Origin: Halostagnicola larsenii XH-48
GTDB lineage: Archaea > Halobacteriota > Halobacteria > Halobacteriales > Natrialbaceae
NCBI RefSeq assembly: GCF_000517625.1
Contig: NZ_CP007057.1
Coordinates: 1-64,000, forward strand
Direction of reading: 5' to 3'
DNA: 64,000 nt
The position numbers and the translations under genes were made by a program. Each line of letters starts with the position of its first letter. Position 1 is the first letter of the stretch. The notes beneath the pieces are model-generated. The model saw only the letters and a program-made list of their open reading frames with translations, ran no database searches and had not been told where the DNA came from. Positions 38,293-49,557 of the stretch are shown here, one piece after another.

Positions 38293-41200
38293 TTACTCGC
38301 TATCTGCCAGGGATTCGGATTCTGATTCGTCGGCAGCTAACTCCTCCGGTGATGTCGGCTCAACGCGCGGTTCCTCCCCGAGGGGCTCGAGACGGACGTT
38401 CGTCACCTTGTACGCCGGAATCTTCGTTTGCGGATCGAACTCCTCTTTCGTCAGTTTGTTGACCGCGCCGTGGACGAAGTGCATCGGGATGAACAGCACG
38501 TCCGGGCCGGACGTCTCCTCGAGGGTCGCCCGGACGACGATTTCGCCCTGCCGCGACTCGACGCGAACGTACTCGTCGTCGGCGATGCCGAGTCGTTCGG
38601 CCGCTTCCGGATGGACGGACACGAAGCTCTCGGGCACCTGTTTCATCGCCGCCACCGATCGACGAGTCATCGATCCCGTGTGCCAGTGATAGAGCACGCG
38701 GCCGGTAGAGAGCGTGAACGGGTACTCCTCGCTCGGGCCGGGGAAGTCTTCCTCGGGCAGTTCGGACGGGACGAATCGCGCCAGCCCATCGTCGAAGTGG
38801 AACTCGTTCTCGTAGAGATACGGCGTTCCGGGATGGTCCTCGTCCCAGCACGGCCACTGCAACCCGTTCTCTCTCGCCTCGAGGCGCTCGTGCGTGACGC
38901 CGCCGTAGATGGGGACGAGTTCGTTGATCTCGTCCATGATTTCGGCCGGCGACTCGTAGTTCCAATCGAATCCCATCCGGCCGGCCAGGGCCTGCAGGAT
39001 GGCGGCGTCCGTCCGCGCCTCGCCGGGAGAATCGACGGCCGGTCTGACGAGCTGGATTCGGCGTTCGGTGTTCGTGACGGTGCCGTACTTTTCGGCCAGC
39101 GAAGCCGCCGGTAGCACGACGTCTGCGTGTTTCGCCGTCTCGGTCATGAACAGCTCCTGAACCACGAGGAAGTCGAGCGCCGCCAACGCTTCCTCGGCGT
39201 GATCGATGTCGGGTTCCGACAGCGCGGGATTCTCGCCGACGATGTACATTCCTCGAAGGTCGACGTTTTCGGGAGTGTATCCCTCGCCGGCGCCAGGATC
39301 GTCGGTACCGCGATCGCCCACGCCGGATTCGGGGTAATCCCCACCGTAGGCGTCGGTTCCCGTTCCGCCGGAAACCGTCTGTCCGACGGTTGGAACGGCG
39401 CTGAACATTTCGGTGATCCGCAGGCCGACCTGGTTCGGTGGACGGACTCCCCAGACCTCCTCGAACGCGTCCAACACGCGCTCGTCGGTGACGGACTGGT
39501 AGCCGGGGAGGTTGTTGGGGATCGGACCCATGTCTCCGCCGCCGCCCTGAACGTTGTTCTGGCCGCGAAACGGGGAGAACCCCGATCGCGGTTTCCCCAG
39601 ATGGCCACAAAGCAGTCCCAGGTTGGCGATCGCGAGCGCATTCTGCGTACCGTGTGAGTGCTGAGTCAGTCCCATCGCCCACCCGTAGACGCAGGTGTCC
39701 GACTGTGCGATCGTCTCGGCCGCGTTCACGAGGTCATCCGGCGCGACGCCGGAGACGTCTTCGACCATCTCGAGCGTGTAGGGGTCGACGGTCTCCCGTA
39801 GTTCGTCGAAGTGTTTGGTGCGTTCCTCGACGAATTCCTCGTCGTAGAGATCCTCCTCGATGATGTGGCGAATCATCCCGTTGATCCAGGCGATGTCCGT
39901 GCCGGGTTTAGTCCGGGTGTACTGGTCCGCGTGATCGGCGATGGTCATCTGTCTCGGGTCGAAGACGAACAGATCCGCGCCGTCTCGAACGTTCTGTACG
40001 ATCCGCGTCGCCAACACCGGGTGGCTCTCGGTCGTGTTCGAGCCGGTAATGAGATAGCAGTCAGTCTCGGCGATGTCCTCGTTGATACGGTTGGTCATCG
40101 CACCGTAGCCGACCGTCTGCTTTAACGCGGCGACGGTCGAGGAGTGACAGAGCCGCGTGCAGTTGTCGACGTGGGGCGTCTCGAGCACCTGTCGGGCGAA
40201 TTTCTGGGCGAGGAAGTTCTCCTCGTTGGTCGCCTTCGACGAGGACGTCACCGCCAGCGAGTCCGCGCCGTACTCCTCGCGGATGTCGGTCAGGCGTTCG
40301 GCGATGCGCTCGAGCGCCTCGTCCCACGAGGCCTCGCGGAACTCGCCGTCCTTCCGGATCAGCGGCGTCGTCAGCCGCTCGTCGGAGCCGACGAAGTCGT
40401 ATTCGAACTTTCCTTTCACGCACGTCGAGAAGTCGTTGGCCGGGGTTTGTTCCGGATCGGCCGGCCGGGTGCCGAGGATTTCGCCGTCCTTGCCGTAGAG
40501 GTTGAATCGACAGCCGACGCCGCAGTAGGTACAGGTCGTATCGGCCACCGTAATATTCCGCTTTCTGGCGCCGCTGACGACCTGCGCGCCGTCGAACAAC
40601 TGACCGGTCGTCAGCGACTTCTCGGCGAGGTGTTCGGCGGCGTGTTCGACCGTAGAGAGCGCGTCGCTCGTCGCTCTCCCGGACAGCGCCGACGCGTTTC
40701 GCTTTGCTTTCTTCATGAACTCGGCGACGCCGGAGAGTCCGCGGTCGGTGGTCCGTGACTCGAGGCGGTCGTCATCTACATTCCCGCCCGCCGAATCCGG
40801 CACCTCGCGGTTTGGCACGTCGGCCGTGTCAGCCGTCTCGACGGGTTTTCCCTCTTGCACTTTTCCGATGGAGTTCTTCTGCGTGAATCCCGGAAGCGGG
40901 ATCGTCGTCGCGTCGACCAGACCGTCCTCCACGAGCGCCCCGGTCGGGCAGACGGTGACGCAGTGTCCACAGGAGATACACGTCGACTCCTCCATCGTGT
41001 TCGCGTCGGGTTTCTGGAAGTCGATGTGCGCGTCGTTCCCGTTACCCGACATCCGGAGGACGCCAGCGACTTGCACGTCGTTACAGGCGTCGATGCACCG
41101 GCTGCAGAGGATGCACTTGTTGCGGTCGATCTGGATAACGTTCGTATCGTCGATGGGGTCGTACGCGTCTCGGTCGCTGAATACGCCGTACCGCGGCTTG

Positions 41201-41739
41201 TTCACGCCGTGTTCGATGGCAGCGTCCTGCAGTTCACACCGGCCGTTCTGGCCGCAGGTCGTACACCGAAGATTGTGATTGCCGAGGACGAGGTCGAGGT
41301 TGACATCGCGGGCTTCCGCCGCATCGGGCGCGTCCGTCGATATCGTGAGTCCGTCCGCGGCCGGGAAGCTACACGACGGAACGAGGCCGTGCTCGTCCGT
41401 TTCGACCATGCACGTTCGGCACGCGCCGTACGGGCCGACGTTATCGGACTGATCGGTTCCGCGGTCGTACGAACACAGCGCCGGCACGTCCGATTCCGTC
41501 TCGACCATCTCGAGCGCGTCGAGAAGCGTCGATCCGGGCGAGACCGCGACGGGGTGTCCGTCGACGGTCACCGTCGTCATATCGTCGCCTCGGACGCCGA
41601 TGTCGGGATCGTTCGCCCTCCCCGTACGGAAGTCGTCCGCCAGCGGCGTACTCGGCTGCGGATCGTCGATCTCCGGCACGCCGGGCATCGCTTCGGCCGG
41701 ACTGTGCTCGGTCGGTCCAGGGGGATCGTCCATACTCAT
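38293..41739 (-). CDS. fdhA: Formate dehydrogenase alpha subunit (Mo/W-bisMGD, Cys type)
   Basis: 1148 aa. Domain order: NuoG-like [2Fe-2S] domain with Cys 89, 107, 110 and 123; a His/Cys cluster around NLRCTTCGQNGRCEL (154-170); two [4Fe-4S] motifs (CILCSRCIDAC 209-219 and CISCGHCVTVC 254-264); a linker of about 110 residues; then the molybdopterin domain with CTYCGVGC (403-410) plus Cys 440. The active-site position is Cys 531 in CTRLCHSSTV, so it is not a selenoprotein. It oxidises formate to CO2. The ATG at 41739 overlaps the upstream stop (ATGA). Confidence 0.95.
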   Translation of the reverse strand: MSMDDPPGPTEHSPAEAMPGVPEIDDPQPSTPLADDFRTGRANDPDIGVRGDDMTTVTVDGHPVAVSPGSTLLDALEMVETESDVPALCSYDRGTDQSDNVGPYGACRTCMVETDEHGLVPSCSFPAADGLTISTDAPDAAEARDVNLDLVLGNHNLRCTTCGQNGRCELQDAAIEHGVNKPRYGVFSDRDAYDPIDDTNVIQIDRNKCILCSRCIDACNDVQVAGVLRMSGNGNDAHIDFQKPDANTMEESTCISCGHCVTVCPTGALVEDGLVDATTIPLPGFTQKNSIGKVQEGKPVETADTADVPNREVPDSAGGNVDDDRLESRTTDRGLSGVAEFMKKAKRNASALSGRATSDALSTVEHAAEHLAEKSLTTGQLFDGAQVVSGARKRNITVADTTCTYCGVGCRFNLYGKDGEILGTRPADPEQTPANDFSTCVKGKFEYDFVGSDERLTTPLIRKDGEFREASWDEALERIAERLTDIREEYGADSLAVTSSSKATNEENFLAQKFARQVLETPHVDNCTRLCHSSTVAALKQTVGYGAMTNRINEDIAETDCYLITGSNTTESHPVLATRIVQNVRDGADLFVFDPRQMTIADHADQYTRTKPGTDIAWINGMIRHIIEEDLYDEEFVEERTKHFDELRETVDPYTLEMVEDVSGVAPDDLVNAAETIAQSDTCVYGWAMGLTQHSHGTQNALAIANLGLLCGHLGKPRSGFSPFRGQNNVQGGGGDMGPIPNNLPGYQSVTDERVLDAFEEVWGVRPPNQVGLRITEMFSAVPTVGQTVSGGTGTDAYGGDYPESGVGDRGTDDPGAGEGYTPENVDLRGMYIVGENPALSEPDIDHAEEALAALDFLVVQELFMTETAKHADVVLPAASLAEKYGTVTNTERRIQLVRPAVDSPGEARTDAAILQALAGRMGFDWNYESPAEIMDEINELVPIYGGVTHERLEARENGLQWPCWDEDHPGTPYLYENEFHFDDGLARFVPSELPEEDFPGPSEEYPFTLSTGRVLYHWHTGSMTRRSVAAMKQVPESFVSVHPEAAERLGIADDEYVRVESRQGEIVVRATLEETSGPDVLFIPMHFVHGAVNKLTKEEFDPQTKIPAYKVTNVRLEPLGEEPRVEPTSPEELAADESESESLADSE

Positions 41740-43406
41740 GATCGGGACACCTCGCAAGCGCCGCTCGGACACCGACCGGCGGCGTGAGCTTTGAACTCGG
41801 TCTCGAACTCCTCGAGCGCCGTATCAACGCTTCGGCCGGCCGACCGGCCGACGTCACAGAGACTCGATGATTGCATGACGCGGGCGAGTTCGCGTATCAT
41901 GTCGTCCTGGTAGGTCCCGTCGTAAACGTCTCGAAGGAGATGCAGAAGCTGCTTCGAGCCCTCGCGGCCGGGGAAGCACCGGCCACAGTTCTCCTCGCTG
42001 GCGAACCGCACGCGCTCGCCGGCCGCCGCCACAGCGCACCGACTCTGGTCGAACAGTTCGACGACGCCCTCGGTTCCGAGGTCGGCGTTGGACAGTGCCA
42101 TCGCGCTCACGGGCTGGTCGATCGATCGGGTAAACCCCCCGAACTGACCGCCCACACACGCCATTTTGAACCGCCCCGCTCCCGCAAAGAGGTCGCGGGC
42201 GACACCGAGCGAACTGCCGGTCACAAGCTCCACGGTCGCCGGCGACTCGACGTCGCCGGTAACCGTGATCACTCGCGTCCCCGGATCGGCGTCCGCCGGG
42301 TCGAATTCGCCGGGCTCGAGTAGCGCCGCACGAACCTGCGCGAACGTCCGAGGCGTGGATACGACCGTCGGCCGACCGTACAGCCCGTGGCGAGCGGGGC
42401 CGGGCGGACGGAGCCGCGCTTCTAGCCGGTCGTTCCCCTCCAGGGCCTCGAGCGCCATGGTGTATTCGCCCGCGATGTACTCGTTCGGACCGGCGACGAC
42501 CTGCGGGGCGGCCTCGTCGTCTACACCCTCGTCTGCACTGCCCTCGGCCTCGAGCGCAGCGACGGCGGTCGCCGCCCGGCGGGTTCGTCGCCGGATGAGG
42601 TCGTCATCCTCGTTGGTGTATACGACGACGTCGCTCGAACTCGCACCCACGATTTCGGCGACGGCCAGCGCCCCATCGAGTACTGTTGCCGGCGATCCGC
42701 CGAGTAGCGTCCGATCGGTCCGGTTACGGCTATCGCTCTCGTTCGCGTTCACTACTACTACCGGATCGTCCGTCGCCTCTCGGACGATCTCGAGGTCGTC
42801 GGCAAGCGGCGTGTCCTGGCTCGCGTCACCTCGCCCGCGCCCGAGAACACCGATGGTGGCGAGCTGTTCGAGCGCGGCGTTCGGATCTTCTCGCGCCACC
42901 GCCACAGCGCCCGAGTCCGCCGGTGCAGCGCGTTCTGGGTCAGTCCAGCCGCATCGACTGAGGATGCGGCGCGTTCCGACGGCGAGCGGACCGTCCGGCG
43001 GCAGTGGAAGCGCGTCGATGTCGGGGTCGTGCTCGACGACCCACGCGGGCTCGTCCTCCCCGATGGAGCCGGATTCAGCCCGCTCCACGAGCGAACGTAC
43101 CCGCTCAGTGGACGGATGCGGATAGTACGCAGTCCGTCCATCACGTGTGACGAGAACGAGCGGCTCGAGCCCGTGTACCCCGGTGGTGCCGACCTCGAGC
43201 ACGTTCGCCTCCGAAGCGGCAGCCTGAGCCGTCTGGAGAACCTTTCGCCCCCGTTCCAGCGGGTGCGGTTCGTCCGGTTCGGCTGTCCCCTGGGTATCTC
43301 GAGCGACACTCGGCGGGTCACCGTATCCGACCGTGACGCGGACAGTTGGCCGGCTTTCGTGCGAATCGGTAGCAGTATTCACATGGGGCGTCCACCGAGT
43401 ACGCAC
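41736..43406 (-). CDS. NuoF-like electron-transfer partner of formate dehydrogenase
   Basis: 556 aa. Residues 40-130 resemble the thioredoxin-like [2Fe-2S] domain but without its cysteines; residues 160-460 follow the NuoF FMN/NAD and SLBB folds (GPNEYIAGEYTMALEALEGN, PTVVSTPRTFAQVRAALLEP, VTGDVESPATVELVTGSSLG); residues 485-535 hold the Fe-S region ENCGRCFPGREGSKQLLHLL with a distant Cys in SSLCDVG. The canonical CGKC-x2-C is CGRC-x2-G here, so one cluster ligand is missing. It should pass electrons from formate to NAD or another acceptor. Coupled to fdhA by ATGA. Confidence 0.88.
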   Translation of the reverse strand: MRTRWTPHVNTATDSHESRPTVRVTVGYGDPPSVARDTQGTAEPDEPHPLERGRKVLQTAQAAASEANVLEVGTTGVHGLEPLVLVTRDGRTAYYPHPSTERVRSLVERAESGSIGEDEPAWVVEHDPDIDALPLPPDGPLAVGTRRILSRCGWTDPERAAPADSGAVAVAREDPNAALEQLATIGVLGRGRGDASQDTPLADDLEIVREATDDPVVVVNANESDSRNRTDRTLLGGSPATVLDGALAVAEIVGASSSDVVVYTNEDDDLIRRRTRRAATAVAALEAEGSADEGVDDEAAPQVVAGPNEYIAGEYTMALEALEGNDRLEARLRPPGPARHGLYGRPTVVSTPRTFAQVRAALLEPGEFDPADADPGTRVITVTGDVESPATVELVTGSSLGVARDLFAGAGRFKMACVGGQFGGFTRSIDQPVSAMALSNADLGTEGVVELFDQSRCAVAAAGERVRFASEENCGRCFPGREGSKQLLHLLRDVYDGTYQDDMIRELARVMQSSSLCDVGRSAGRSVDTALEEFETEFKAHAAGRCPSGACEVSRS

Positions 43407-43814: not shown

Positions 43815-44567
43815 CTACGATCGTTTCGTATCTATCTCAAAGGGGAATTCATCCAAACTCTCCTCGTTGGACGTTGGAAGGAGATATTGTTTCCACTCTC
43901 GAGTATCGGGATCGCCGTAATCTCCGATGTCGGGATGCGGTGCGTCATCGTCGTAGTCCTCTAACCGATCTCTGATAACCGAACGAGCACGTCGGCCTTC
44001 TTTCGTGTCTCCGGTAACATCCTCGAGGATTCTCCGTGGCTGGACCGTTATTTCCAGTCCGTCTTGCGTATACCTGCTCTTTCGATTCGTATAGAACGGA
44101 GCGCGCCCGACGATGAACATGGATTCTCCAGCGAAGCAAAATTCCCACTCAGGATCATCCGGGTCCGCGGGAACGTCGCTGGGCCATGGCTCCGGATCCC
44201 GTTCGTTGAGGAACTCGAGAACTCTCCAGAACTGATCACGATATCTCTGCTCGCGCTGTTCCTCGGGCGGAGGCTTGAAAAATATCACCAGAGTCGTTCG
44301 TTCGGCTATCGACTGATACCGCTCGAGGTATTGTCGCAACCCCTCTCTCACTTTGAGGAGTGCGTCGCGGTCGCCAACGTCTCCCACGAAGAGGTATCGG
44401 GCGGTATGGTTACGTTCAGCGTTCACCGCGAAGTGACACGGATACCGAGTGCTCTCCATCGTCTCTTTGAACTCGAGATATCGCTTTTTCTTCCACGCGA
44501 GTAGCTCTCCCGTTTCTATCGCGTCTTGCAATTCGGATCGATCGAACAGTAGCCCCGTCTCCGTCAT
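43815..44567 (-). CDS. YqcI/YcgG family protein (GntA-like N-oxygenase candidate)
   Basis: 250 aa, end-to-end match to the YqcI/YcgG family pattern: ESTRYPCHFAVNAERNHTAR (38-57), DQFWRVLEFLNERDPEPWPS (111-130), DPEWEFCFAGESMFIVGRAP (138-157), NRKSRY (161-166), QPRRILEDVTG (176-186), IRDRLEDYDDDAPHPDIGDY (198-217). One member, GntA, is a heme-dependent enzyme that N-hydroxylates an arginine-derived guanidine; this supports, but does not prove, an N-oxygenase role. Last gene of a four-gene operon, 23 bp after the sulfate-activation gene. Confidence 0.85.
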   Translation of the reverse strand: MTETGLLFDRSELQDAIETGELLAWKKKRYLEFKETMESTRYPCHFAVNAERNHTARYLFVGDVGDRDALLKVREGLRQYLERYQSIAERTTLVIFFKPPPEEQREQRYRDQFWRVLEFLNERDPEPWPSDVPADPDDPEWEFCFAGESMFIVGRAPFYTNRKSRYTQDGLEITVQPRRILEDVTGDTKEGRRARSVIRDRLEDYDDDAPHPDIGDYGDPDTREWKQYLLPTSNEESLDEFPFEIDTKRS

Positions 44568-44590
44568 GGTTGGGATGTCATTGGGAAATC

Positions 44591-45442
44591 TCAGTCCTCG
44601 AAGTGCCGTCCCGCGAGGAGGTCGCTTTTCCCGTATTCCTCGCGCGTCTCGGTTCCGCTTATCTCTGCGACCTCATCGGGGACCGAGACGACCGAGTATC
44701 CGACGTTCCGCCCGATAGCGACGGTATCGACGTCCGGAATGATCATCGTCCGGACGTTCGGATAGTCCTCGTAGACGTCCTCGATTAGCTCTCGACGTTC
44801 CTGTGCAGTGAGTGGATTTTCCTCGCTGAGTTCGGTGTCGCGGATGGCGACGACGACGTCCTTTCCATTATCGGCGGCCGAATCGATGATCGTTCGGTGG
44901 CCATCGTGAAGCGGTTGCCACCGACCGATGAAAATGTGGCTCGGATCGAACTTGAGGTCCAGTTCCGCGTTAATCTTCTCGATGGTCTTTTCTTTCGAGT
45001 GTCTCGCCGTCCGAACTTCGAGTTCGATCTCCTCCGGCTCCTCGAACGGCGCATCAACACCGGTAAAGCCATCGATCTCTCCGCTGTGGGCTTGTTCGTA
45101 CATTCCCTTCACGTCGCGTTCTTCGCACACTTCGACGGGCGCGTTGACGTATACGAACGAGACGTCCTCGAGTTTCTCGGCGATCAGTTCCCGCTGAGAA
45201 CGGTACGGTGTGATGAACGACGCGACGACATCGAACCCCTGTTCGTTCAAGGCCTGTGCAACCCCGGCAGCTCGTCTGAGGTTCTCGGTTCGATCCTCCT
45301 TCGAAAACCCGAGATCGGAATTGAGGGTGTTCCGGAGATAATCGCCGTCCAGATGGACCGTATTCGGGCCGATCAACCCTTCGGCGAGCGTCGTCTTTCC
45401 GGAACACGGCAGTCCGAAGAGCCAGATGGTTTCTCCAGACAT
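44591..45442 (-). CDS. cysC: APS kinase fused to a HIGH-type nucleotidyltransferase
   Basis: 283 aa, two domains. Residues 1-160 are an adenylylsulfate kinase: P-loop GLPCSGKTTLA (10-20), LDGDYLR (31-37), GFSKEDRTENLRRAAG (45-60), SFITPYRSQR (75-84), KGMYEQAHSGEIDGFTG (112-128). Residues 168-275 are a cytidylyltransferase-like (HIGH) domain: GRWQPLHDGH (173-182), NPLTAQERRELIEDVYEDY, and an ISGTETREEYG closing motif. The kinase makes PAPS from APS. The second domain could supply APS, since ATP sulfurylase belongs to the same superfamily; this is inference. The start overlaps the previous stop (TAATG). Confidence 0.88.
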   Translation of the reverse strand: MSGETIWLFGLPCSGKTTLAEGLIGPNTVHLDGDYLRNTLNSDLGFSKEDRTENLRRAAGVAQALNEQGFDVVASFITPYRSQRELIAEKLEDVSFVYVNAPVEVCEERDVKGMYEQAHSGEIDGFTGVDAPFEEPEEIELEVRTARHSKEKTIEKINAELDLKFDPSHIFIGRWQPLHDGHRTIIDSAADNGKDVVVAIRDTELSEENPLTAQERRELIEDVYEDYPNVRTMIIPDVDTVAIGRNVGYSVVSVPDEVAEISGTETREEYGKSDLLAGRHFED

Positions 45443-45711
45443 TAATCGATCCCCTCCGTACGCCGAGTGAATCTATTTGCCTCTCTCCAAATCCTACCTG
45501 CAGTGGTGATTTCGGAGATACACGTCTCGAGCAGTTTCGACGTCGCATTCAGCGTGTTGTTGAATATGGGAATTGTCGTGTCTATCATACTCGTGAGGTT
45601 CACCGCCGTCGATCTCGTCGATCGCCAATCGTCGATGCCAGGGCGCCGATCGACGTGAGTCGCTTCGCCGCTGTCCCTATCCAGTTCTTTTGCCGTTCTG
45701 CTCAGATCCAT
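45442..45711 (-). CDS. Unknown 89-aa protein, coupled inside the sulfation operon
   Basis: MDLSRTAKELDRDSGEATHV ... MIDTTIPIFNNTLNATSKLL ... RFTRRTEGID. Its start lies 10 bp inside the sulfotransferase gene and its stop shares one base with the next start (TAATG), so both ends are translationally coupled. The N-terminal half is charged and probably disordered; the middle (about 40-75) is helix-forming and mildly hydrophobic. No family is recognised. A carrier, anchor or substrate peptide are all possible. Confidence 0.6.
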   Translation of the reverse strand: MDLSRTAKELDRDSGEATHVDRRPGIDDWRSTRSTAVNLTSMIDTTIPIFNNTLNATSKLLETCISEITTAGRIWREANRFTRRTEGID

Positions 45712-47108
45712 TCCCGTTCCTCCGTGTATTCCAGTTCCTCGAGTACCCCGGTATACGTCTCGTCGGCTCGCTCAAGCGCACTCATGACGAGGTCCTCCCT
45801 GTCTCGCCAGCGAGCGCGTCGCGGTTCTTTCGTCGTCATCACCTTATTTGGGCTTTCGACGTTCTCGGAAAGCAGCGCCGACTCACCGAGGTCCGCGAAT
45901 TCGACGATCTCCGTGATCGTGGACTCGGTATCGGTGAGAACGTCCTCGAACCTGACTCGAAGAACGTCCTCGAACGCGTCGCGACCGTCGAGAATATGGC
46001 GATGGGCCTGGGTCCACTGCATCAGACAGATGTCGATGAGGTTTCCTTCGCGAACCCACCCCGGCGGGAGATCGTAGCACCACAGCGAGCCATCGTATCC
46101 GTCGATGTCGAGATCGCCTACATCGTACGTCTGGAACCCCCTGTGCAACTGCCACCCGTCGTAGAGGCCGTTGATCGACGCCGCTGGGTTTCGTGTGAGG
46201 TGGACGACTTTGCTATCGGTCTCGGGAAATAGCTGCTCGCGGATCCACGGCAGTCGGTACGCGTCGCCGCTTGCTTTCAGGATGAGCGTCCGCTCGAAAT
46301 CGTCGACCGTGAGACCGCGCTTGTGCCTGTGCGAGGAGACGAACGGCCGGTCCTCGATAGTTTCGGTTTCGAACGGGCTGTCTGCGTCTCGCTCTGCATA
46401 CTCATCGTACTGCAATGGCGCGATTCCGAACCCCTCGAGTATCTTCTTCAGCGAGACCCCCTCGAGCAACTGTTCGCGTATCCGCTCGTATGGAAGCTCT
46501 CGATTCGGAAATTGCAACGGAAGCCGGACGAGCGTGTTGTCTACACGATGCGCTCGGTCGCCGGAGCGTTCGGTTGCACCGACTTCGGCGAGAAGATCCG
46601 TCAGGAGTTTTTCCCTATCGAACGATTCGAAGTCGGGCGGAACGACATCGGAATCGAACGCCGGGTAACAGATCCCGTTCAGCGTGTACCATCGGTCGTG
46701 TTCGCCATCGAGGCTACAGGTTCGTTCATGGTGTCGAAGGATATCGAAAAGGAGGCTACTCCCCCCTCTCGGAGCCGACGTGATAAACAGCACACTATCG
46801 AAGTCATCAACCCGATACTCCGAGAGAATCGATCGTTTCGCCTCCGAAATCACCTCGTTTTGTATCCGTTCGTAGTTCTGTGTGGCCTGCTCTCGGTGAT
46901 CGATCGGCGGATCTTCGAGACTCACCAGCCACCACCTTCCAGTGAGTCCGCCGAATTTCGCCGTTGTTGAAACCGATAGATCGATTCCATCGAACGTAGT
47001 CGCGCTGTCATAATTTGGTTGTTCGTCAACCAGTACCCCGGCAGCGGCTACCGGTTCCCTGTCGTGGGCTCGAGTGCTGCCAGACGAGATCGACGAGTAG
47101 GTGTACAC
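45702..47108 (-). CDS. PAPS-dependent sulfotransferase
   Basis: 468 aa. The 5-prime phosphosulfate-binding loop is LFITSAPRGGSSLLFDILRH (107-126; family P-R-S-G-[ST]-[ST]) and the 3-prime phosphate-binding segment is VVHLTRNPAASINGLYDGWQ (301-320). A C-terminal GEEREWI-like tail completes the Sulfotransfer fold. It transfers sulfate from PAPS to a hydroxyl or amino group of an unknown acceptor. Residues 1-100 are not conserved in the fold; a GTG at 47108 is the reported start and later GTGs are possible. First gene of the operon; AT-rich promoter region upstream. Confidence 0.85.
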   Translation of the reverse strand: MYTYSSISSGSTRAHDREPVAAAGVLVDEQPNYDSATTFDGIDLSVSTTAKFGGLTGRWWLVSLEDPPIDHREQATQNYERIQNEVISEAKRSILSEYRVDDFDSVLFITSAPRGGSSLLFDILRHHERTCSLDGEHDRWYTLNGICYPAFDSDVVPPDFESFDREKLLTDLLAEVGATERSGDRAHRVDNTLVRLPLQFPNRELPYERIREQLLEGVSLKKILEGFGIAPLQYDEYAERDADSPFETETIEDRPFVSSHRHKRGLTVDDFERTLILKASGDAYRLPWIREQLFPETDSKVVHLTRNPAASINGLYDGWQLHRGFQTYDVGDLDIDGYDGSLWCYDLPPGWVREGNLIDICLMQWTQAHRHILDGRDAFEDVLRVRFEDVLTDTESTITEIVEFADLGESALLSENVESPNKVMTTKEPRRARWRDREDLVMSALERADETYTGVLEELEYTEEREWI

Positions 47109-48425: not shown

Positions 48426-49557
48426 GTGAGAGACCTAATCGCAGAGGCCCGACGTGAGGGCGAACTCATCGGCAAGATGACGGTCGCTATCGACGAGACG
48501 AAGGGCCACCCGTGGACGGGGGAGATCGAGCGCGACTAGGACGGCAACAACATCGAATCGTGGCGTCTCGGCTACGCGAACGACAACGATACGCGGACGC
48601 AGTATTACTACAAGTGGGCGGCGATTCAGGTCGTTGGTTTCGACATCCCCATCGTCCTTGATGCGCTCCCGGTGAAACGCGGCATGACGAAAGGCGAGAT
48701 CGTGGACGAACTACTCTCGTCCGCGACCGATCTCCTCGATGACGTTGAACTTGTGTTGATGGACGGCGGCTTCGATTCCGAGGCCGCGAAAAACAGCGCA
48801 GAATCCAACGACCCTCTGTACGTCAACCGGAAGAGCCGGGACAAGGACGATAAGCGGCGAATGCGAAAGATGTGGTCAGACTATGACGAGGAACTCGAAG
48901 CCGTCCGAATCGTCGAGCAGGAAGATTACGCCGGGATGCCGAACCGGAAGATCGTCTACGTCCCGAAGATGATCACCAACGACGAAGACGAAGAAGGGGA
49001 CGAAGACGATGGGATGCGACAAGGCCTGATCGAGGACTTCACAGAGACCGTTGAACCCGATGATGACAGCGAAGACTTCCCCGACAAATCGCCGTTCGAC
49101 TCGCTCATCGAAGAGATGCGGGCGGAAGAGCAGGACAAGAAGGAAGTCCAAGACGAAGATGACGAGTTCTATCCGTCGGAGATGTACGTTGCGTTCGAAA
49201 CGAACCACCCGCGGGCAGCTAAGCGTCCGGGTCGTGGTGAGGATGATTACTCAGAACGCGAGCAACAGCAGGCAGCGGCCCGGATCGTCCGTAAGTATGG
49301 TTTTCGATGGGGGATAGAGAACGGATTCAAGAAGCGTGGTCACTTCCTTCCTTGAACCGCGAGTCCGAACCACGTCCTGCGATTCTTCGGATTCATTTTT
49401 GCGGCGACTCTCTACAACGCCTGGCGACCCTTTGGACATCCTCGTTCAGCTCTCCATTGAGGACAATCCGACGTATACGCCACTCGTCACAGCGTCCCGA
49501 TTCATGGCGGTGATGGAAGGACAGTTCGGCCTATCGAAACCGCCGCCGAAGGCTTGA
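48426..49557 (+). pseudogene. DDE transposase, stop- and frameshift-disrupted
   Basis: Frame from 48426 reads VRDLIAEARREGELIGKMTV and AIDETKGHPWTG, then TAG at 48537-48539, then YYYKWAAIQVVGFDIPIVLD and VELVLMDGGFDSEAAK (second catalytic Asp), through QAAARIVRKYGFRWGIENGF (third catalytic Glu). Near 49350 the frame shifts twice, giving NHVLRFFGFIFAATLYNAWR and finally SIEDNPTYTPLVTASRFMAV. Overall pattern is an IS4-superfamily haloarchaeal transposase. Non-functional. Confidence 0.85.

What the first reader, a model, noticed from the sequence alone, without database searches (positions are those of the whole stretch)
43815..47108. Four-gene predicted sulfation and N-oxygenation module
Seen: sulfotransferase, an unknown 89-aa protein, an APS kinase fused to a HIGH nucleotidyltransferase, and a YqcI/YcgG protein are encoded head to tail; the first three genes overlap (10 bp and 1 bp) and the last follows after 23 bp. 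Known: sulfotransferases use PAPS, APS kinase makes it, and the GntA member of YqcI/YcgG is a heme-dependent N-hydroxylase. Inferred: a self-contained unit that activates sulfate and decorates an unknown, possibly N-hydroxylated, molecule. I know of no described system with this composition.
Basis: partly seen in the sequence, partly recalled or inferred. Interest (0 to 1): 0.82.

Follow-up and report, generated by a model that had tools for sequence, protein, structure and literature searches.

The report
Archaeal sulfur–nitrogen cassette with swapped enzyme
A small gene set that hops between salt-loving archaea carries its own sulfate-activating enzyme and relatives of two genes that Streptomyces needs to build the rare sulfamate group of nucleocidin, and its variants suggest that arginine supplies the nitrogen, a step nobody has yet explained.

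Summary
The genes are real and belong together, but one is mis-called. The sulfotransferase starts at 46925, not 47108. The "unknown 89-aa protein" is a decaying stub of a DDAH/arginine-deiminase-like pentein gene: intact (286 aa) at this position in six haloarchaeal loci, frame-broken in half of 20 stub loci, cut to 20 codons in another.

The unit is a mobile haloarchaeal cassette (22 of 391 genomes, 15 of 86 genera, often on plasmids). Relatives of the sulfotransferase in Streptomyces, Micromonospora, Myxococcota and Omnitrophota sit beside the same pentein, several with the gene set of nucleocidin/ascamycin sulfamylation, where nucO (sulfotransferase-like) and nucN (pentein) are required.

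Cassettes with an intact pentein lack YqcI, and five of six carry a dedicated extra argininosuccinate synthase. Cassettes with a stub always have YqcI (22/22), recruited twice independently.

The APS kinase is fused to a minimal NMNAT-like adenylyltransferase. Canonical ATP sulfurylase is absent from 18 of 19 such genomes, so this domain probably makes APS.

Proposed mechanism (inferred): PAPS is made in cis and the sulfotransferase N-sulfonates an arginine guanidine. The pentein then releases sulfamate and citrulline, which ArgG recycles. In the window's version a heme guanidine N-oxygenase replaces the pentein.

The parts
45702..46925 (-). PSB-like motif PRGGSSLL and 3'-phosphate motif LTRNPAASINGLYDGW are almost invariant.
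   Evidence: Pfam Sulfotransfer_3 1.8e-10; start set by 22 relatives; BLASTP 33%, 1e-58 to a Streptomyces relative that sits beside a pentein; no real similarity to the NucK-like sulfotransferase of the same type of cluster
45442..45711 (-). Remnant ORF (89 aa) of a DDAH/arginine-deiminase-like pentein (NucN-like) gene. Keeps only N- and C-terminal scraps and the start/stop overlaps; catalytic Cys and His are gone.
   Evidence: Intact 286-aa gene at the same place in L048, L049, L052, L054, L098, L099; 10 of 20 stubs frame-broken; loss of codon-position bias; homology chain window to L033 3e-12 to intact pentein 6e-21; 20-codon stub in L095
44591..45442 (-). APS kinase fused to a minimal HIGH adenylyltransferase, 283 aa; predicted PAPS synthase
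   Evidence: TIGR00455 apsK 160.3 bits, above its 138.7 cut-off; same two domains fused in reversed order in an Omnitrophota locus with sulfotransferase and pentein
44960..45442 (-). APS kinase domain (residues 1-161)
   Evidence: Pfam APS_kinase 2.7e-45; human PAPSS1 and bacterial APS kinases in the PDB
44594..44950 (-). NMNAT/PPAT-like adenylyltransferase domain (residues 165-283), motifs GRWQPLHDGH and ISGTETR; candidate ATP sulfurylase
   Evidence: canonical ATP sulfurylase missing from the genome
43815..44567 (-). YqcI/YcgG-family protein (predicted heme-thiolate guanidine N-oxygenase), 250 aa, invariant Cys44 in YPC[HY]F
   Evidence: PF08892 9.2e-75; NF041366 GntA 60 bits, below its 145 cut-off; Cys invariant; family chemistry from PMC10849742
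45702..45711 (-). 10-bp overlap of the sulfotransferase end with the remnant start (ATGGATCTGA), kept even where the remnant is 20 codons long

Best explanation
The unit is a mobile haloarchaeal cassette for making a sulfur-nitrogen (N-sulfo or sulfamate type) compound. It is built from relatives of the nucleocidin/ascamycin sulfamylation proteins NucO and NucN plus its own PAPS synthase. SHOWN: conserved linkage, kinship, the decayed pentein gene, its mutually exclusive presence with YqcI, two separate YqcI recruitments, an extra argininosuccinate synthase in pentein-intact cassettes, and the absence of canonical ATP sulfurylase. INFERRED: (1) the NMNAT-like domain makes APS from ATP and sulfate and the APS kinase domain makes PAPS; (2) the NucO-like sulfotransferase puts the sulfonyl group on a guanidine nitrogen, most likely of L-arginine; (3) in the ancestral form the DDAH-like pentein hydrolyses the N-sulfoguanidine to citrulline plus sulfamate (as DDAH turns N-methylarginine into citrulline plus methylamine), and ArgG recycles the citrulline; (4) in the window's form the pentein step is gone and a heme-thiolate guanidine N-oxygenase (YqcI/YcgG) acts on the same guanidine, so the product is probably an N-oxidised N-sulfo or N-sulfooxy guanidine compound, or sulfamate released oxidatively.
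For: Sulfotransferase relatives across phyla sit beside a pentein (18 of 26 bacterial loci, 17 directly adjacent). Several of these loci hold the nuc/acm set: GyrB with C-terminal methyltransferase, rubrerythrin-like protein, B12-radical SAM, NucK-like sulfotransferase, UbiE-type methyltransferase, sulfatase (gene table PMC4257720; knockouts PMC10946740). Intact haloarchaeal pentein resembles dimethylargininase and arginine dihydrolase. A dedicated extra ArgG sits 3-6 nt after the APS-kinase fusion in 5 of 6 pentein-intact loci and in none of 22 stub loci. YqcI is in 22/22 stub loci and 0/6 intact loci, with two recruitments (AU p 1.7e-5). No intact pentein exists elsewhere in stub genomes. 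Sat is absent in 18/19 fusion genomes but present in 8/9 genomes that have only a stand-alone APS kinase. YqcI/YcgG relatives AglA, GntA and ChmN are heme guanidine N-oxygenases (PMC10849742).
Against: No product or activity is known for any member. NucO and NucN sequences were not held, so the match to them rests on gene context, size and description, not direct alignment. NucN has been called an amidinotransferase. Haloarchaeal cassettes lack the other nuc sulfamylation genes (nucG, I, J, K, L, P, Q), so a full sulfamylation pathway is not present. Haloarchaea with sulfated glycans may make PAPS by another unknown route, so missing Sat is not proof. How YqcI substitutes for the pentein chemically is not explained. 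L054 has an intact pentein but no ArgG in the cassette.
Confidence: 0.5

Rival explanations
1. O-sulfation module: the cassette sulfates a sugar, lipid or other alcohol, and YqcI or the pentein tailors a separate guanidino group on the same small molecule, as in saxitoxin- or cylindrospermopsin-like logic. No S-N bond is made.
For: Most sulfotransferases act on O; cyanotoxin clusters combine sulfotransferase, APS kinase and an arginine-derived guanidine (literature hits, own knowledge); haloarchaea do sulfate glycans (PMC11980604).
Against: No glycosyltransferase, PKS/NRPS or other scaffold gene is conserved with the cassette in haloarchaea; the sulfotransferase belongs with the NucO-type proteins of sulfamylation clusters; the dedicated ArgG points to arginine/citrulline turnover rather than tailoring.
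Confidence: 0.2
2. The NT-APS kinase fusion does not make PAPS but activates another anion (for example sulfamate made by the sulfotransferase/pentein pair) to a PAPS-like donor, in the way the APS-kinase homologue of the Campylobacter O-methyl phosphoramidate pathway works on a CDP-phosphoramidate (own knowledge).
For: The NT domain is NMNAT/PPAT-like, not a canonical sulfurylase, and is fused in both orders to the kinase beside sulfotransferase and pentein genes.
Against: Then no sulfate-activating enzyme would remain in 18 of 19 genomes; PAPS genes are required for sulfamylation in S. calvus (PMC10946740); YqcI-type cassettes keep the fusion although the pentein is gone.
Confidence: 0.12
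3. The pentein is an arginine deiminase or amidinotransferase that supplies ammonia or an amidino group, with the sulfotransferase acting on the resulting amine; YqcI belongs to an unrelated step that merely replaced it in position.
For: NucN/AcmN are annotated as amidinotransferases and were proposed to install the amine (PMC4257720, PMC9113183, PMC10946740).
Against: Profile hits are dimethylargininase and arginine dihydrolase, not glycine amidinotransferase; an amidinotransferase gives ornithine, which ArgG cannot use; YqcI gain and pentein loss coincide in two separate recruitments.
Confidence: 0.13
4. The 89-aa ORF is a functional small protein or peptide precursor rather than a stub.
For: Open in the window and in 9 other stub loci; both gene overlaps are kept.
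Against: Frame-broken in 10 of 20 stub loci, including the closest relative L032; only 20 codons in L095; codon-position identities 0.57/0.56/0.50 against 0.90/0.92/0.73 for the intact gene.
Confidence: 0.04

Closest known systems
Sulfamylation sub-cluster of nucleocidin (nuc, Streptomyces calvus) and ascamycin (acm)
   Same: Sulfotransferase-like protein of NucO/AcmO type next to a NucN/AcmN-type pentein, dependence on PAPS; context confirmed in bacterial relatives
   Different: Haloarchaeal cassette has only these two plus a fused PAPS synthase; no nucG/I/J/K/L/P/Q; extra ArgG or YqcI instead; pentein often lost; mobile, 3-4 genes
YqcI/YcgG heme guanidine N-oxygenases (GntA, AglA, ChmN)
   Same: Family profile and invariant Cys (heme thiolate in ChmN, PMC10849742)
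   Different: Not GntA (60 vs 145 bits); placed with sulfate activation; about 45% identical to a common haloarchaeal chromosomal paralogue
PAPS synthases (human PAPSS1/2, SAT/APS kinase fusions)
   Same: APS kinase fused to a HIGH-superfamily adenylyltransferase
   Different: Adenylyltransferase is a 119-aa NMNAT/PPAT-like domain, not the ATP-sulfurylase family PF01747
Dimethylarginine dimethylaminohydrolase / arginine dihydrolase penteins
   Same: Intact middle gene in relatives scores with these and keeps the C-terminal GG-x-x-C and the H-L motif
   Different: Below all equivalog cut-offs; the window copy is dead

Membership tests
NucO/AcmO-type sulfamylation sulfotransferase | Sulfotransferase fold signatures (PAPS-binding motifs) | tested here: met
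   Sulfotransfer_3 41.9 bits, cut-off 27; motifs almost invariant. Structure model failed (pLDDT 37).
NucO/AcmO-type sulfamylation sulfotransferase | Homology to proteins encoded next to pentein, GyrB-methyltransferase and rubrerythrin genes | tested here: met
   33% identity, 1e-58; bacterial contexts
NucO/AcmO-type sulfamylation sulfotransferase | Direct sequence match to NucO or AcmO | not tested
   Sequences not held in the available collections
nucleocidin/ascamycin sulfamylation cluster | Nine cluster genes nucG,I,J,K,L,N,O,P,Q | tested here: not met
   Only O (and N in relatives) conserved in haloarchaea
YqcI/YcgG (PF08892) | Profile score and invariant heme-ligand Cys | tested here: met
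   251.5 bits; Cys44 in all
GntA (NF041366) | Equivalog cut-off 145 bits | tested here: not met
   60 bits
Heme guanidine N-oxygenase | Heme binding and N-oxygenation of a guanidine | not testable with these tools
   Needs protein
APS kinase (TIGR00455) | Equivalog-domain cut-off 138.7 bits | tested here: met
   160.3 bits
Canonical ATP sulfurylase (PF01747) or CysDN | Family profile in fusion or genome | tested here: not met
   Fusion hits CTP_transf_like; no PF01747 in 18 of 19 genomes, no CysD or CysN over cut-off
NMN adenylyltransferase | Equivalog cut-off (TIGR01527 181 bits) | tested here: not met
   36 bits; domain about 50 aa shorter
Pentein (DDAH/ADI), window ORF | Catalytic Cys and His | tested here: not met
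   Absent in the 89-aa ORF at the aligned places
Pentein (DDAH/ADI), intact relatives | Family similarity with catalytic Cys and His | tested here: met
   Dimethylargininase profile up to 1e-12, below equivalog cut-off; C280 and H186 invariant

The most novel reading that the evidence does not exclude
Haloarchaea carry a minimal, mobile pathway in which arginine is the nitrogen donor for sulfamate: PAPS-dependent N-sulfonation of arginine, DDAH-type release of sulfamate and citrulline, and ArgG recycling. This pathway was twice rewired by swapping the pentein for a heme guanidine N-oxygenase. A 119-aa NMNAT-like domain is a third, previously unknown type of ATP sulfurylase. The same chemistry would then explain the unknown origin of the sulfamyl nitrogen in nucleocidin and ascamycin.
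Probability: 0.3. Interest if true: 0.93.

Novelty: new variant of a known kind. Interest (0 to 1): 0.8.

Why it matters
Sulfamate groups are rare in nature but prized in drugs. The nucleocidin knockout study says its results do not show how or when the amine of the sulfamyl group is incorporated (PMC10946740). A three- or four-gene archaeal cassette that isolates two of the required proteins, pairs them with their own PAPS source and with an arginine-recycling enzyme, and has natural variants with a swapped enzyme, makes that question testable in vitro with few proteins. It also offers a candidate new type of ATP sulfurylase and a clear case of an enzyme class being replaced by another acting on the same functional group.

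Tried and rejected
Rejected the 89-aa ORF as a RiPP-like or small functional protein after finding the intact gene in relatives and decay in the stubs. Rejected Campylobacter-type or Rax-type peptide sulfation as first guesses: no Tyr, and the ORF is not conserved. Structure of the sulfotransferase failed with the shallow haloarchaeal alignment (pLDDT 37), so no fold search was made with it. NT-domain model moderate (pLDDT 66), fold hits PPAT/NMNAT. No relatives in viral contigs. Phage proteins with the same kinase-NT architecture exist, but their neighbours are not sulfation genes. A first YqcI tree included wrong-strand rows and was replaced. Literature searches for haloarchaeal sulfamate or newer nucN/nucO work found nothing beyond the cited papers. 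The haloarchaeal N-glycan sulfotransferase paper does not mention PAPS supply.
Full report
CHECK OF THE OBSERVATION. The four minus-strand ORFs exist with the stated overlaps and gap. Pfam and NCBIfam confirm a Sulfotransfer_3 protein, an APS kinase (TIGR00455 above its cut-off) fused to a cytidylyltransferase-like HIGH domain, and a YqcI/YcgG protein. The 89-aa ORF matches no family.

DISTRIBUTION. The sulfotransferase occurs in 22 of 391 haloarchaeal genomes, 15 of 86 genera, in several families. The APS-kinase fusion occurs in 19 of them, always near the sulfotransferase. The other three hits are two at contig ends and one fragment. Protein identity is 72-93%. Members of one genus (g50) carry different cassette types, flanking genes differ between loci, and eight hits lie on plasmid records. 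This is a mobile cassette, so co-occurrence is not a fixed neighbourhood inherited vertically. No relative was found in viral contigs.

THE 89-AA ORF IS A DEAD PENTEIN GENE. Between sulfotransferase and APS-kinase fusion, L048 and L049 (two copies in one genome), L052, L054, L098 and L099 encode an intact protein of about 286 aa. Its best profiles are dimethylargininase and arginine dihydrolase (1e-12 and 4e-8), and its PDB relatives are the arginine dihydrolases Alr4995 and Sll1336. Cys280 and His186 are invariant in the four aligned. All other loci hold stubs that keep only the first residues and the last 50 or so. L033's stub is 78% identical to the intact C-terminus (6e-21) and the window stub aligns to L033's (3e-12). 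Of 20 stubs, 10 are frame-broken, including that of the closest relative L032. In L095 only 20 codons remain. Codon-position identities among stubs are 0.57/0.56/0.50, against 0.90/0.92/0.73 for the intact gene and 0.87/0.93/0.68 for the sulfotransferase of the same loci, so protein-level constraint is gone. The comparison was ungapped, so the figures are approximate. No intact pentein is found elsewhere in the stub genomes. What persists is the pair of start/stop overlaps, plausibly for translational coupling.

A SWAP, NOT JUST A LOSS. YqcI is in all 22 stub loci and in none of the 6 intact loci (Fisher p 2.7e-6, but loci are related, so this is not a count of independent events). In the sulfotransferase tree all stub loci form one supported branch (96/99) away from the intact ones, with the two Halocatena loci as its first split. 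Halocatena carries its YqcI on the opposite strand upstream, and that protein groups with a different haloarchaeal YqcI. One clade with the other cassette YqcI proteins is rejected (AU p 1.7e-5). So YqcI was recruited at least twice, each time where the pentein is decayed. YqcI/YcgG members AglA, GntA and ChmN are heme guanidine N-oxygenases, with a Cys heme ligand shown in ChmN (PMC10849742). The matching Cys is invariant here. Both swapped enzymes thus belong to families that act on guanidines.

CITRULLINE RECYCLING. In five of six pentein-intact loci an argininosuccinate synthase gene (NF010392 and TIGR00032 above cut-off in the two tested) starts 3-6 nt after the APS-kinase fusion. No stub locus has one. 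Genomes with it keep a second, separate ArgG (three in all in G194, two in G336), whereas stub genomes have one (none found in the incomplete G309). ArgG consumes citrulline, so this is independent evidence that the pentein makes citrulline from an arginine derivative. It does not by itself say which derivative.

KINSHIP TO SULFAMYLATION GENES. A genome scan with the sulfotransferase profile found 26 bacterial loci (Streptomyces, Micromonospora, Myxococcota and other proteobacterial MAGs, Omnitrophota, a cyanobacterium). In 18 a related pentein is in the locus, directly adjacent in 17. Many of these loci also hold a NucK-like sulfotransferase, a B12-binding radical SAM enzyme, a rubrerythrin-like protein, a DNA gyrase B with C-terminal methyltransferase, a UbiE-type methyltransferase and a sulfatase. 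This is the published content of the ascamycin and nucleocidin clusters (PMC4257720; PMC10946740). There acmN/nucN (pentein, 319 aa in acm) and acmO/nucO (444 aa in acm, weak Sulfotransfer_3 match in NucO) are neighbours, and nucN and nucO knockouts lose sulfamylation. The haloarchaeal sulfotransferase matches the NucO-like and not the NucK-like protein (33%, 1e-58, against 0.01). I did not have the NucO or NucN sequences, so this identification is by context, size and description. The haloarchaeal cassette is not a nuc cluster: seven of its nine sulfamylation genes are missing.

SULFATE ACTIVATION. The HIGH domain is 119 aa, NMNAT/PPAT-like in sequence and predicted fold. An Omnitrophota locus with sulfotransferase and pentein has the same two domains fused in the opposite order, so their joint action, not their order, is conserved. 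Canonical ATP sulfurylase is absent from 18 of 19 fusion genomes and no CysD or CysN exceeds its cut-off. Of ten haloarchaea with a stand-alone APS kinase, nine have ATP sulfurylase, next to the kinase by coordinates; G336, which also has the fusion, is one of the nine. The simplest reading is that the NT domain is the sulfurylase and the fusion a compact PAPS synthase. Caveat: other haloarchaea may supply PAPS by an unknown route.

MECHANISM. Shown: linkage, kinship, decay, swap, ArgG, missing sulfurylase. Inferred: PAPS made in cis; sulfonation of an arginine guanidine by the NucO-like enzyme; DDAH-like hydrolysis of the N-sulfoguanidine to citrulline and sulfamate, by analogy with N-methylarginine hydrolysis (own knowledge); ArgG recycling. 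In the window's version, N-oxygenation by YqcI replaces hydrolysis and no citrulline recycling gene is kept, so the product is likely to differ. I put about 0.8 on 'mobile NucO/NucN-type S-N cassette', about 0.65 on PAPS synthesis by the fusion, about 0.5 on arginine as the nitrogen source, and about 0.3 on the complete scheme.

NOVELTY. I found no description of this cassette, of archaeal relatives of the sulfamylation genes, or of this fusion as a PAPS synthase (only open-access literature is searchable). Components are known families, so I call it a new variant of a known kind.

Noticed in passing
L103:26-7837 (Omnitrophota MAG JAQUOM010000001.1): Compact cluster of NucO-like sulfotransferase, pentein, NT-APS kinase fusion, two B12-radical SAM enzymes and two UbiE-like methyltransferases; looks like an uncharacterised sulfamylation-type pathway with its own PAPS synthase.
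   Followed up: partly
L102, L104, L105, L107 (Streptomyces, Streptacidiphilus): NucO/NucN-like pair, in the loci read with a family-2 glycosyltransferase, an MFS exporter and a melibiase-like glycosidase, but without the other nuc genes within 7 kb; possibly a different sulfamated or N-sulfo product.
   Followed up: no
L138:4998-5744 and L139:4995-5726: Xanthomonas and Stenotrophomonas phages encode ~240-aa proteins with the same kinase plus nucleotidyltransferase architecture (phrog_10255) outside any sulfation context.
   Followed up: partly
window 38293-41772 and 41736-43406: Large molybdopterin/Fe-S formate-dehydrogenase-like protein (judged by eye from its sequence) and an upstream neighbour lie next to the cassette, but they are not conserved beside it in other genomes.
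   Followed up: no
window 48672-49355: Transposase-like ORF (judged by eye) about 1.7 kb upstream of the cassette, in line with mobility.
   Followed up: no
G165:C31:125000-125287: Degraded sulfotransferase fragment (58% over 96 residues) in a genome without the rest of the cassette.
   Followed up: no
L115, L119, L121: Records titled Klebsiella pneumoniae or Bifidobacterium breve MAG carry nuc-like genes typical of other bacteria; the organism names of these MAGs look wrong.
   Followed up: no
haloarchaea at large: About two thirds of haloarchaeal genomes have a YqcI/YcgG gene roughly 45% identical to the cassette copy, of unknown role.
   Followed up: no
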